Shown here: one piece after another, positions 2,436 to 23,178 of the stretch | How the letters are laid out: the number at the start of each line of letters is the position of its first letter | Numbering within the stretch: the first letter of the stretch is position 1 | Origin: an uncultured bacterium | Lineage (GTDB): Bacteria; Bacillota_I; Bacilli_A; RFN20; CAG-826 | Assembly (NCBI GenBank): GCA_949290395.1 | Contig: CASERQ010000001.1 | Coordinates: forward strand, 1 to 64,000 | Length of the DNA: 64,000 nt | Direction: 5' to 3' | Notes under the pieces: generated by a model | Database searches by the model: none | Seen by the model: only the letters and a program-made list of their open reading frames with translations | What the model was told of the DNA's origin: nothing | Position numbers and translations under genes: made by a program

Positions 2436-4094
2436 TTATTTCTTTTTGAGATATTTAAGGGAGTCAAGACAGACAGCAGCCATAATAATGAGTCCCTTGA
2501 AGATGAATGTAATATTAGTATCAACGCCAATGTTAGCTAAACAATAAGTCATACCAGAGAAGATAATTGTACCAACAACAGCTCCGCTAATTTTACCAAT
2601 ACCACCAGAGAAAGAAATACCACCGACAACACAAGCCGCAATAGCATCAAGTTCGGTACCAAAACCTGTGTTAGGGTTATTGGAGCTACCTGCAGCAGCT
2701 GTGAAGAATCCACCAAATCCATAGAGGACACCAGCCATAATAAAGACAAACATTGTTGTCCAGAAGACTGAGATACCACTAACGGAAGCAGCTTCAGCGT
2801 TTCCACCTACTGCATACATATTTTTACCGAATTTTGTTTTGTTCCAAATGAACCAAACTATTGCGATTGCGATAATTGCAAAGATAATTAAGTTTACGTT
2901 ACTATCTCCTCTGATTGAGTTCTTAAGGTCACGGTTCATATCAAATCCAGGATAAGAACCAAACATCATCATGAATAAACCATAAGAGACAAGTTGAGTT
3001 GATAATGTAGTAATGAATGGATGCATTTTGAATTTTGCACTGAAGAAGCCAGCAATTGATGTAAAGATAACACAGACAAGAACACTAGCGAAGATACCAA
3101 GAGCAATTTTACCACCAACACTGAAACCAGTAGGGTCAATAGTAATTCCAAATAAAGCATCATTTACGATAAGGTCGCCACAGAAGATTGCGGCAAGTGT
3201 TGCACCTACACCAGTTAAACGACCAATGGATAAGTCGGTACCAGCTAAGAGAATTAATCCAGCAACACCCAAGGAATAGAATACCTTGTATGAAGATTGT
3301 CCTAAAATACCAAGTATGGAATTCCAAGTAATAAGGGAGCCTTCACTAACAATAATGAAGATAATGAAGATAATTAAGATAACGATATAAAGACCATTTT
3401 TAAGTAAGAAATTCTTTGTATCGAAATTATAAACATAACTTCTTCCTTTATATTCGAAGAACTCATCTATTGAATGATGGTTATTACGACATTTTGATTG
3501 GAAAGTATATTTTTCTAAGTAAGCATCGTATCTTCTATCTTTTGCTTTAGAAATTGTATCTACTTTCTTATTTTTTACATTTTCCTTTTTGGATTGGAAG
3601 ACAATTTTAGCATCCTTTAAATCACGTTTATAATCTTCAGGACTAAGTTCGCCTTTTCTAGCTTTAATATTTGCAACTTTTTCTTTGTATTCTGCAGTGA
3701 TTTCAGCTAAATCTTGGCGATATTCTTCTTTTGCTGCGAGCATTATTTGCTTTTCAGTTTCACAAACTTGAGCATAATATTCTTTCCATTCAGCAGCGTA
3801 TTCTTTAATAGCCTTTGTATAAATTTCTTTTACTTGTTCTTTATTTTCATTTTTGATTTTAACGGCTTCAGCTTTTAATGCTTTGTTCTTTTCAAATAAA
3901 GCTTGCTTGTCCTCTTTAGCCATTTGCTTATTTAAACGTGCATCTTTATTTTCGTCAGCCAAAGCTATGATTTTGTTTTCGCCGTCTTTTCTGAGTTTTT
4001 CTAATTCATCAAGATATTTATTGTAAACTTCATTTTTCTTTAATGGGCTTACAATTGATGAACTATCAACTCTTATAGTTGCGTTTTCGCTCAT
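2436..4094 (-). CDS. mglC: Galactose/methylgalactoside ABC permease with long helical N-terminal extension
   Basis: A 552-residue membrane protein. Residues from ~230 on match a normal MglC/RbsC-type permease (BPD_transp_2 family; about 330 residues), including GLILLAGTDLSIGRLTG and a C-terminal AACVVGGISFSGGIGKI segment. It would form the membrane channel with MglA. The first ~225 residues are extra: soluble, very rich in Lys, Glu and Ala, with heptad-like helical stretches (about 20-145 and 150-195), ending at the first membrane helix near residue 234. The whole is one frame with a good ribosome site (TAGGAG) before the ATG. The gene follows mglA by 14 bases. The permease call is secure; the role of the extension is unknown. 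Confidence 0.93.
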   Translation of the reverse strand: MSENATIRVDSSSIVSPLKKNEVYNKYLDELEKLRKDGENKIIALADENKDARLNKQMAKEDKQALFEKNKALKAEAVKIKNENKEQVKEIYTKAIKEYAAEWKEYYAQVCETEKQIMLAAKEEYRQDLAEITAEYKEKVANIKARKGELSPEDYKRDLKDAKIVFQSKKENVKNKKVDTISKAKDRRYDAYLEKYTFQSKCRNNHHSIDEFFEYKGRSYVYNFDTKNFLLKNGLYIVILIIFIIFIIVSEGSLITWNSILGILGQSSYKVFYSLGVAGLILLAGTDLSIGRLTGVGATLAAIFCGDLIVNDALFGITIDPTGFSVGGKIALGIFASVLVCVIFTSIAGFFSAKFKMHPFITTLSTQLVSYGLFMMMFGSYPGFDMNRDLKNSIRGDSNVNLIIFAIIAIAIVWFIWNKTKFGKNMYAVGGNAEAASVSGISVFWTTMFVFIMAGVLYGFGGFFTAAAGSSNNPNTGFGTELDAIAACVVGGISFSGGIGKISGAVVGTIIFSGMTYCLANIGVDTNITFIFKGLIIMAAVCLDSLKYLKKK

Positions 4095-4108: not shown

Positions 4109-5605
4109 TTATAAATATTTTGCACAAAGATTTAACAATTCTTGCTGATTTGTTTCTTTTGTGTTTACAACACCTGCACAACGATAGTTGGACATAACAA
4201 CAATTCTATCTGTAACACCTAAAATTTCAGGCATTTCAGAAGAAACCATGATAATACTCTTACCTTCGCTAGCAAGTTTAATCATCAATTCATAGATTTG
4301 ATATTTGGCCATAATATCAATACCACGAGTTGGTTCATCCATTAAGAATACATCTGGATTTCTTTCTAGCCATTTACCAACAATGACCTTTTGTTGGTTA
4401 CCACCAGATAAAGAGGTGATATTGTCGTCGACGTTATTACATTTTGTATGCATTTGTTCGACTTCATAATTAGCGGCTTTTCTCATAAGAGTATTTGAAA
4501 GAATTCCAAATTTCTTATACTTATCTAAGTTTGTAATGCAGGTATTAAAGACAAGATCGCCTTTACCGAACATACCGTTTAGTTTTCTTTCTTCGGTAAC
4601 CATTGCGAAGTTGTAATCCATAGCTTGTTTTGTGCTTTCAAAACGAATTCTTGAACCTTTGTAAATTATTTCGCCTTCAGACATCTTTCTTGCACCAAAT
4701 AATGTTTCTAAGAGTTCACTTCTTCCGGCACCAACAAGGCCATAAATACCTAAAATTTCACCTTTACGTAGATCAAATGTTACATCTTTAAGGTGAGGAG
4801 CATATCTTGTAGATAATCCTTTTACACTTAAAATTACATCTCCAGGAATATTTGTCATCTTAGGGAATCTACTTTCAAGGCTTCTACCAACCATTGCATG
4901 AACGACTTCATCAAGGTTTGTGTCTTTAATAGCTTTATCTAAAGTAACTTCACCATCTCTTAAAACAGTAATATCATCACATAATTCAAAGATTTCATCC
5001 ATTTTATGAGAGATAAAGACAATTCCAATTCCAGTTTTGATTAAATCTTTTAAAATTTTAAATAATTGTTTAACTTCTCTTTCCGATAAAGAAGATGTTG
5101 GTTCGTCCAAAATAATAATTTTAGCATCGTAAGAAACGGCTTTTGCGATTTCAACCATTTGTCTTTGAGAAACCGACATTGTTCTCATTAAAGTTTTTGG
5201 ATCGACATTCATGTTTAATCTTGCGAAAAGTTTTTTACATCTTGAATTCATCTCTGCTTCATCAATGATTCCAAAACGTGTTCTATAACGCCCTAAAAAC
5301 ATGTTATCTGAAACTGTTCTTTCAAGACATTGATTGAGTTCTTGGTGAACCATAGCAACGCCATTTTCTAAAGCTTGTTTTGGTCCATGAAATTCAATCT
5401 TTTCACCATTAAGTTTAATAGTTCCAGAATCTCTTGAATAAATACCAAATAAGCACTTCATCATGGTTGACTTACCGGCACCGTTTTCACCCATAAGCCC
5501 CATAATAGTTCCAGGTCTAACATGTAAATGAATGTTTTTCAAAACTCTATTTTTTCCAAATGATTTTGACATGTCGTCAATTTCTAATAGATATTTTTCA
5601 CTCAT
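4109..5605 (-). CDS. mglA: Galactose/methylgalactoside ABC importer ATPase
   Basis: A 498-residue tandem ATPase of the sugar importer type. The first domain has Walker A GENGAGKST (39-47), the signature-like SVSQRQMVEIAKA (~145) and Walker B ILDEPTSSL. The second has the usual degenerate P-loop GLVGAGRSE and the signature LSGGNQQKV. Length and domain order are normal for MglA/RbsA. It lies between the binding protein and permease genes, with AAGGAAG before its ATG, and should power uptake of galactose-like sugars from the inner face of the membrane. RbsA-type sugars are an alternative, but the binding-protein residues favour galactose or glucose. Confidence 0.95.
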   Translation of the reverse strand: MSEKYLLEIDDMSKSFGKNRVLKNIHLHVRPGTIMGLMGENGAGKSTMMKCLFGIYSRDSGTIKLNGEKIEFHGPKQALENGVAMVHQELNQCLERTVSDNMFLGRYRTRFGIIDEAEMNSRCKKLFARLNMNVDPKTLMRTMSVSQRQMVEIAKAVSYDAKIIILDEPTSSLSEREVKQLFKILKDLIKTGIGIVFISHKMDEIFELCDDITVLRDGEVTLDKAIKDTNLDEVVHAMVGRSLESRFPKMTNIPGDVILSVKGLSTRYAPHLKDVTFDLRKGEILGIYGLVGAGRSELLETLFGARKMSEGEIIYKGSRIRFESTKQAMDYNFAMVTEERKLNGMFGKGDLVFNTCITNLDKYKKFGILSNTLMRKAANYEVEQMHTKCNNVDDNITSLSGGNQQKVIVGKWLERNPDVFLMDEPTRGIDIMAKYQIYELMIKLASEGKSIIMVSSEMPEILGVTDRIVVMSNYRCAGVVNTKETNQQELLNLCAKYL

Positions 5606-5675: not shown

Positions 5676-6983
5676 TTATTTAACTAATTCGTCAATGTGT
5701 GCTTCGAGATAGTCAACAATCATTTCACCTTGGAGTTGTCCACCTTGGTTAGCGTCAAATCCAACGTAGTAAATATTTGTAAATCTCTTATCTTTCATAA
5801 CATCAGCATCAACTGAACCATCAGCTTTTGTGCCTTGTCTGTTCCAGAAGATAACTGGGACATTTGTAGGAGCGGCTTCAGTAGCGCCTGTCTTTGTAGC
5901 GATAATATCAAGATATTCAGCAGCACTAGTTGTTTTAACCATGTTGATACAATATGCGTCAAAATCATTAGCTGCTGCTCTTAATTTATCTGTAACTTGT
6001 TTTTCATCGTTACCATCACCAGCAGTTGAGTCATCTAATGTAATATTCATCATTGGAGCATATGCACGGAATAATGGCTTCATGGAGCTGTTTAAGAATG
6101 TATCACTTGCACTATAGTAGTTTAAGAAGACTTTAATATTGTCGCCACCAGTATATGATTTAATTGGTTCTAATTGTTCTGTAACAGGAATGGCTTTTCC
6201 AGCTTCATCTACATAATCGTCAATATTAGAAGAATCAACTTTTGCGTTGTTAACTAAGAAAGCTTTTGTTTCTTCGTTGTATGCAAATTCTTTTTCAACA
6301 TAACCATAATTGTTGGCGTTAGCTTCACCAAAACCTTTTGTATAAACGTCTTTACCAGTCAATCCATCAGCAGCATTACGAGCGACCATTAAGATACCTG
6401 CAGCTTGAGCTGGAGCGTTTTGATTAATGGTACCCATAATAAGACCTTGTTTAATCTTGACTAATGTAGTTTCGTTAGAGTCATAACCGAAGATTGGCAT
6501 GCCATCTTCCCAGTTTGTAGCAGATGTTGCGCCTTCTGCCATACCATCATTATTAGAAACAAAGAAATTAATACCTTGTTCTTCAACAACTTCGCCATCA
6601 GCTGTTTGCCATTTGTCACTTGCGTGTTTGCTTAACCAAGCTTCAGTGGTTTGTGTAGCTGTTGCAGCATCCCATGTAGCACCACCGGTAGCTTTTTGTT
6701 CTGCGTGTTCAACTTCGTTAATTCTATATGTTTTTCCGTTGATTTCTAATTCACCTTGAACTGGAGTTTCCATGTTAGGGTTGGTCATCTTTGTACCTCT
6801 TGTTCCTAAAGCATCACGGATACCAGCTGTACGTGCAGCACTATCATTATGGTCGATTTGTCCGATTAAAAGAGCATAGTTAATATCAACGCCTTTTTCA
6901 TAATCTGGATCGCCACCGCCACAAGATGTAGCAACTATTGATAAAAGTGCTAAAGCAGTAAATGGAATTAATCTTTTTTTCAT
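5676..6983 (-). CDS. mglB: Circularly permuted galactose/glucose-binding lipoprotein
   Basis: A 435-residue exported lipoprotein: signal peptide with lipobox VATSC (Cys21). The mature part matches MglB/GGBP in two blocks in swapped order. Residues ~25-257 match the second half of E. coli MglB (HND at 45-47, Arg51, Trp104, NND at 144-146, FGYD ending at Asp168). Residues ~281-435 match the first half (SDTF, Asp294 and Phe296; VPVIFWN, Asn381; YYVGFD). All these correspond to known sugar contacts. The new N-terminus falls at the Ca2+-binding loop, and a linker of about 23 residues (258-280) joins the old ends. It should deliver galactose or glucose to MglAC. AGGAGG precedes the ATG. The family call is secure; the permutation is read from motif order. 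Confidence 0.93.
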   Translation of the reverse strand: MKKRLIPFTALALLSIVATSCGGGDPDYEKGVDINYALLIGQIDHNDSAARTAGIRDALGTRGTKMTNPNMETPVQGELEINGKTYRINEVEHAEQKATGGATWDAATATQTTEAWLSKHASDKWQTADGEVVEEQGINFFVSNNDGMAEGATSATNWEDGMPIFGYDSNETTLVKIKQGLIMGTINQNAPAQAAGILMVARNAADGLTGKDVYTKGFGEANANNYGYVEKEFAYNEETKAFLVNNAKVDSSNIDDYVDEAGKAIPVTEQLEPIKSYTGGDNIKVFLNYYSASDTFLNSSMKPLFRAYAPMMNITLDDSTAGDGNDEKQVTDKLRAAANDFDAYCINMVKTTSAAEYLDIIATKTGATEAAPTNVPVIFWNRQGTKADGSVDADVMKDKRFTNIYYVGFDANQGGQLQGEMIVDYLEAHIDELVK

Positions 6984-7063: not shown

Positions 7064-7077
7064 TGAAAGCGCTTACA
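7064..7077. promoter_or_regulatory. cre site (CcpA operator) upstream of mglB
   Basis: TGAAAGCGCTTACA matches the cre consensus TGWNANCGNTNWCA at every position. It lies 81-94 bases upstream of the mglB ATG and overlaps a TTGTAA that could serve as a -35. This suggests catabolite repression of the mgl operon if the host has CcpA. Confidence 0.75.
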
Positions 7078-23149: not shown

Positions 23150-23178
23150 ATTTTAAAACCTTTTGGAATCGCTTACAA
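23150..23178 (-). promoter_or_regulatory. Promoter of hydCBA with overlapping cre-like box
   Basis: On the minus strand TTGTAA (23173-23178) and TAAAAT (23150-23155) are spaced by exactly 17 bases. The box TGGAATCGCTTACA at 23164-23177 differs from the cre consensus at one position and covers the -35 and part of the spacer, which would suit repression by CcpA. Confidence 0.65.

What the first reader, a model, noticed from the sequence alone, without database searches (positions are those of the whole stretch)
5676..6983. MglB galactose-binding protein is circularly permuted
Seen: motif blocks of E. coli MglB occur in swapped order. The block holding H152/D154/R158, W183, N211 and D236 comes first (here H45, D47, R51, W104, N145, D168). 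The block holding D14/F16 and N91 comes last (D294, F296, N381). Nearly all known sugar contacts are kept. The cut lies at the Ca2+-binding loop, so the lipid anchor (Cys21) is joined almost directly to that loop, and a ~23-residue linker joins the old ends. Loop residues aligned with D134, N136, D138, Q140, Q142 read D, E, G, D, N, so metal binding may be altered. Inference: tethering at the hinge side of the second lobe changes how the clamshell presents to MglC. I know of no described natural permuted member, but could not search.
Basis: partly seen in the sequence, partly recalled or inferred. Interest (0 to 1): 0.95.

Follow-up and report, generated by a model that had tools for sequence, protein, structure and literature searches.

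The report
Sugar-binding protein with shuffled segment order
The sugar-catching protein of this gut bacterium's galactose/glucose importer is a rearranged version of the normal one, with front and back halves swapped; one such rearranged relative was already known from the syphilis spirochaete, but this one is cut at a different place, and its close relatives show that the same gene has been rotated again and again in one group of bacteria while staying in the same operon.

Summary
The minus-strand gene 5676-6983 (435 aa, lipoprotein, first gene of mglB-mglA-mglC) carries the two halves of E. coli MglB in swapped order, with all ten sugar contacts in place (N256 as Gln, as in the Treponema protein). 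Calling it unprecedented is wrong: Treponema pallidum Tp0684 (PDB 5JX2; "Type Ic", 2016) is a natural circularly permuted MglB and the closest solved relative (E 2e-59). But the window protein is cut elsewhere. With E. coli written C-D-A-B, Tp0684 is D-A-B-C and the window A-B-C-D, cut in the Ca2+ loop, which is lost. Among relatives in the same operon slot I found five orders: CDAB, ABCD, DABC, B''CDAB' and A''BCDA'. The last two are one genome each; the last is sister to an ordinary CDAB protein of its genus. One DABC protein lies inside the ABCD group on an independent MglA+MglC tree (AU p 0.0003) and carries an ABCD-type scar instead of the Ca2+ loop that 84 of 85 DABC proteins have. At least five rotations are needed. 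Most likely these are working glucose/galactose binding proteins whose lipid-anchored end has moved, probably through tandem copies. New variant of a known kind; binding and rotation mechanism untested.

The parts
5676..6983 (-). mglB, circularly permuted glucose/galactose-binding lipoprotein, 435 aa, block order A-B-C-D
6921..6983 (-). signal peptide and lipobox (VATSC, Cys21)
   Evidence: sequence; the same kind of lipobox starts every rotated relative
6879..6905 (-). remnant of the Ca2+-binding loop at the new N-terminus (DYEKGVDIN, residues 27-35), EF-like motif lost
6651..6884 (-). block A (residues 34-111): contacts H45, D47, R51, W104 (E. coli H152, D154, R158, W183)
6213..6572 (-). block B (residues 138-257): contacts N145, D168, Q188 (E. 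coli N211, D236, N256)
6135..6212 (-). linker joining the old C- and N-termini (residues 258-283)
5907..6134 (-). block C (residues 284-359), Pfam Peripla_BP_7: contacts D294, F296 (E. coli D14, F16)
5706..5864 (-). block D (residues 374-426): contact N381 (E. coli N91); first in Tp0684, last here
4109..5605 (-). mglA, ATPase of the same importer
   Evidence: NCBIfam PRK10982 E 6e-199; next gene in all 49 operons checked
2436..4094 (-). mglC, permease with an N-terminal extension of about 220 aa
   Evidence: NCBIfam PRK09478 E 7e-77 over residues 225-552
7064..7077 (.). palindromic cre-like operator TGAAAGCGCTTACA upstream of mglB (CcpA/LacI-type; inferred)
   Evidence: 4 matches in the window against 2 expected, so weak by itself

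Best explanation
This is the substrate-binding lipoprotein of a glucose/galactose ABC importer (MglBAC) whose gene has been circularly permuted. It belongs to the clade that also holds the known permuted Tp0684, but is opened at a different point: canonical C-D-A-B, Tp0684 D-A-B-C, window A-B-C-D. The chain should fold into the usual two-lobed clamshell with the sugar site intact; the lipid-anchored end now leads into the strand behind the former Ca2+ loop, and that metal site is gone. In this clade the old ends are fused, so the opening point can move: the same operon gene has been re-opened several times (C|D, D|A, inside A, inside B), each time behind an intact lipobox. Shown: order, intact ORF, operon slot, retained contacts, predicted fold, repeated independent changes. 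Inferred: sugar import; rotation by tandem duplication, head-to-tail fusion and trimming; selection that only needs a lipobox followed by a foldable circle.
For: Sequence: (both halves match MglB/Tp0684 in swapped order). Structure. Five block orders among relatives. Same operon slot mglB-mglA-mglC in 49 of 49 operons covering all five orders. Contacts. Independent changes: MglB tree (6 changes needed); MglA+MglC tree (7 changes). All DABC as one clade rejected (p 4e-54; p 1e-78). L033 (DABC) inside the window's ABCD group: AU p 2.6e-4 for keeping it out, and its D-A junction scores 9.2 bits as an ABCD N-terminal segment against -19.4 as a DABC Ca2+ loop. L037 (A''BCDA') is sister to canonical L041 of its genus, 100/98 and 100/99 support. 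Tandem copies of ABCD mglB in G183, G008, G039, G078, G091 show that the raw material for rotation exists.
Against: No direct intermediate was found: no fused double gene, no relic copy in the long B-C inserts, no vestige behind L036. B''CDAB' and A''BCDA' are one genome each. Two gene trees disagree on whether ABCD arose once: MglB rejects it (p 0.0095), MglA+C does not (p 0.41). On the MglB tree, placing L033 outside the window's ABCD group is not rejected (p 0.32), nor is placing L036 outside DABC (p 0.29). Sugar binding is not measured.
Confidence: 0.86

Rival explanations
1. It is simply another Type Ic protein like Tp0684, with the same single ancient permutation, and the apparent difference is an alignment artefact.
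For: Tp0684 is the best match by far, and A, B, C align colinearly with it.
Against: Block D (N91 contact) aligns to Tp0684 residues 22-74 but lies at window residues 375-428, after C. HMM mapping gives DABC for all 70 spirochaetal mglB proteins kept and ABCD for the window and 32 relatives. Tp0684 has N91 at N19 and D14 at N311 (PMC4990184 Table 2).
Confidence: 0.03
2. The different orders arose by moving or recombining segments between paralogous binding proteins (the canonical CDAB gene often next to it) rather than by rotating one gene.
For: A canonical CDAB paralogue lies next to or near the permuted gene in several operons. Brautigam et al. considered that block C may have come from another gene. 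Block D of ABCD proteins scores 7-11 bits better with that paralogue.
Against: Blocks A-B and C score better with the MglB proper than with the paralogue in c1, DABC, L036 and L037. L033's junction scar is explained by its own group's two ends meeting.
Confidence: 0.15
3. The permutation is adaptive: moving the lipid anchor changes how the clamshell is presented to MglC or eases export of a tethered protein.
For: All permuted members read here carry a lipobox. The 2016 paper suggested tethering strain as a reason.
Against: Canonical lipoproteins of the same operon type (L041) persist, and anchors land at four different places, which fits tolerance as well as selection. Not testable here.
Confidence: 0.2
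4. Assembly or binning artefact.
For: Relatives are MAGs; two orders are singletons.
Against: About 25 genomes share the ABCD order; intact ORFs with lipobox and stop in the same operon slot; several named MAGs from different sources.
Confidence: 0.02

Closest known systems
Treponema pallidum Tp0684 / TpMglB-2 (PDB 5JX2, 6BGC, 6BGD), 'Type Ic / Cluster Bc' (PMC4990184)
   Same: Homologous (E 2e-59), old N- and C-termini joined, same Peripla_BP_7 block, same sugar contacts except D14 (Asn in Tp, Asp here), lipoprotein, importer operon with a related permease.
   Different: Opened between C and D (DABC) with an EF-like Ca2+ loop retained; the window is opened at the D-A junction inside that loop (ABCD) and has lost it.
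E. coli / Salmonella MglB (GGBP, PDB 2FVY, 1GCA, 3GBP), canonical Type I
   Same: Same two-lobed fold, all sugar-contact positions, same operon partners MglA and MglC.
   Different: C-D-A-B order, Ca2+ site present, no lipid anchor in E. coli, E. coli MglC lacks the 220-aa extension.
Engineered circularly permuted binding proteins and biosensors
   Same: Show that the clamshell tolerates new ends (general knowledge, not tested).
   Different: Man-made; here the changes are natural and repeated.

Membership tests
MglB / GGBP family (Type I sugar-binding proteins) | Sequence homology over both lobes | tested here: met
   NCBIfam PRK15395 E 4e-20 but 72 bits against a cut-off of 420
MglB / GGBP family (Type I sugar-binding proteins) | Sugar-contact residues D14, F16, N91, H152, D154, R158, W183, N211, D236, N256 | tested here: met
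   all ten positions filled, N256 as Gln as in Tp0684
MglB / GGBP family (Type I sugar-binding proteins) | Canonical order C-D-A-B | tested here: not met
   A-B-C-D
MglB / GGBP family (Type I sugar-binding proteins) | Ca2+ loop DxNxDGxxQ plus E205 | tested here: not met
   DYEKGVDIN and N139
MglB / GGBP family (Type I sugar-binding proteins) | Operon with mglA and mglC | tested here: met
Type Ic (TpMglB-2-like) | Old ends joined, circularly permuted | tested here: met
Type Ic (TpMglB-2-like) | TpMglB-2 topology: chain starts at the strand with N91, C block last (D-A-B-C) | tested here: not met
   D block is last in the window protein
Type Ic (TpMglB-2-like) | Fourth inter-lobe crossover and extended segment | tested here: inconclusive
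   B-C linker present and model overlays Tp0684 at 2.2 A over 304 residues; crossovers were not measured on coordinates
Type Ic (TpMglB-2-like) | Peripla_BP_7 (PF18610) | tested here: met
   residues 284-354, E 3e-17
Type Ic (TpMglB-2-like) | Binds D-glucose and closes on binding | not testable with these tools
   needs ITC or sedimentation as in PMC4990184

The most novel reading that the evidence does not exclude
The mglB gene is a natural case of serial circular permutation: in one order of small-genome gut Bacilli an orthologous operon gene has been opened at four points in at least five events, including a rotation of an already rotated gene that left a readable scar, so the place where the lipid anchor meets the clamshell drifts while transport function is kept.
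Probability: 0.7. Interest if true: 0.75.

Novelty: new variant of a known kind. Interest (0 to 1): 0.62.

Why it matters
Natural circular permutations are usually single, ancient events seen between distant families (general knowledge). Here one operon gene shows five orders among close relatives, with a canonical sister in the same genus in one case and a scarred re-rotation in another, so the steps of permutation can be studied directly. It also gives natural tests of whether the tether point and the Ca2+ site of binding proteins matter, and warns that order-dependent homology tools and topology classes ('Type Ic') split one orthologous family.

Tried and rejected
Relic copies of blocks in the 100-200 aa inserts of the long g9 proteins: none; the inserts are loop expansions. 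Vestige of duplicated sequence behind the stop of L036: none. Origin of block C from the neighbouring canonical paralogue: not supported; block D leans that way in ABCD proteins, weakly and unexplained. The 380-aa relatives first seemed to lack the first strand of block A; on reading they hold it with GNPEAEDR for GHPDAEAR, so they are ABCD with two changed contacts. One apparent EF-like loop in ABCD (L006) is a false regex match. Sequential fold matches to ordinary Type I proteins (Z about 15, model 33-430 against RBP 1-257, about 12% identity) could be mistaken for a normal strand order; I read them as a swap of the two pseudo-symmetric lobes, since sequence homology places the parts the other way round (inference). 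Papers on natural permuted binding proteins: apart from the Tp0684 paper none found in the library; subscription journals are mostly not held.

Full report
What is there. The gene lies on the minus strand, 6983-5676, 435 aa, with signal peptide and lipobox (Cys21), followed by mglA (4109-5605) and mglC (2436-4094); galK, galT and an aldose epimerase lie on its other side.

Is it permuted? Yes. Each half was searched alone: residues 263-435 match GGBP residues about 10-129 and the N-terminal half matches 173-280. I call the blocks of E. coli MglB C (D14, F16), D (N91), A (H152, D154, R158, W183) and B (N211, D236, N256); E. coli reads C-D-A-B, the window A-B-C-D. The AlphaFold2 model is confident (pLDDT 88.4, pTM 0.86); the best fold matches are the three Tp0684 entries.

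Is it new? A permuted MglB is known: Tp0684 of Treponema pallidum, 2016, with homologues in treponemes and Gram-positives and the proposed name Type Ic (PMC4990184). It starts with block D (N91 is N19) and ends with C (D14 is N311). In the window D is last. Among the spirochaetal mglB genes mapped, every one is D-A-B-C. So the window has the same closed circle, opened elsewhere.

How many orders? Whole-genome searches of the window's family, order and class and one scan of genome contigs gave relatives whose ORFs I mapped with block HMMs. Distinct complete proteins: 85 DABC, 33 ABCD (two of them with block A hit twice), 22 CDAB, one B''CDAB' (L036, cut between the D236 and N256 contacts) and one A''BCDA' (L037, cut between the R158 and W183 contacts). 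The permuted proteins read in full begin with a lipobox-type signal peptide, and in 49 of 49 operons checked the protein sits directly before mglA. MglA is about 57-76% identical to the window's across these orders. The rotation therefore most likely happened in place.

How often? On the MglB tree of rotated sequences six changes of order are needed, on the MglA+MglC tree seven; starred branches force at least two changes each for ABCD, DABC and CDAB. The better cases: (i) L037 is sister to canonical L041 of its genus in both trees, so it arose from a canonical gene on its own. (ii) L036 groups with DABC proteins in both trees and keeps the DRDGDG loop, although its exclusion from DABC is not rejected on the MglB tree (p 0.29). 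(iii) L033 is DABC but lies inside the window's ABCD group on the MglA+MglC tree (AU p 2.6e-4 against keeping it out). Its D-A junction reads YLAAQEEANTDWWQHAIEDGKLTY: an ABCD-like tail followed by the W..A..DG segment that in ABCD proteins follows the lipobox. It is the only one of 85 DABC proteins without the EF-like loop. (iv) Beyond these the ABCD and the main DABC orders each need an opening. That makes at least five events. Whether ABCD arose once or twice is open: the MglB data reject one clade (p 0.0095), MglA+C do not (p 0.41), and the shared W..A..DG segment of both ABCD groups favours one origin.

How it most likely works. Shown: contacts kept, confident clamshell-type model, operon with ATPase and permease. 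Inferred: it captures galactose/glucose and hands it to MglC. The Ca2+ site is lost in the window protein and most of the ABCD group, kept in L038 and L040, whose opening lies just before the loop. PMC4990184 reports that no function beyond stabilisation is posited for that site in E. coli and that metal does not affect sugar binding, so its loss need not harm uptake. Rotation route: tandem copies exist, and tail-to-head fusion of such copies with loss of the inner signal peptide would give exactly L033's junction; no fused intermediate was found.

Verdict. Observation confirmed, claim of no precedent wrong, and the wider finding, serial rotation of one operon gene, is the interesting part. 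Weak points: two orders rest on single MAGs, binding is untested, and the literature check covers open-access papers only.

Noticed in passing
2436-4094 (window) and MglC of the other operons: MglC carries an N-terminal, probably coiled-coil, charged extension of about 220 aa before the permease core; it is present in all Bacilli and spirochaetal operons checked, whatever the order of MglB, and absent from E. coli MglC (336 aa).
   Followed up: partly
L004, L010, L021, L031, L034, L036 and several spirochaete loci: A second, canonical CDAB sugar-binding lipoprotein of about 345 aa lies next to the permuted mglB, or behind mglC in spirochaetes; in families f16, f19 and f28 two canonical copies stand in tandem. 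The window lacks it.
   Followed up: partly
G008, G039, G078, G091, G183 (L016, L017, L018, L015, L007): Two tandem ABCD mglB genes, often overlapping by a few bases, some enlarged to about 500-615 aa by loop insertions between blocks B and C.
   Followed up: partly
L019-L025, L039 and L038/L040: A second ABCD group has N and E in place of the sugar contacts H152 and D154 (GNPEAEDR), which suggests another sugar specificity.
   Followed up: no
7064-7077, 23164-23177: Perfect matches to a cre-like palindrome (TGWAARCGNTTNCA), one about 80 bases before mglB; a similar sequence is seen before mglB of L036.
   Followed up: no
block D of ABCD proteins (loci): Block D scores 7-11 bits better with the neighbouring CDAB paralogue than with MglB proper, unlike blocks A-B; possible gene conversion, unexplained.
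   Followed up: no
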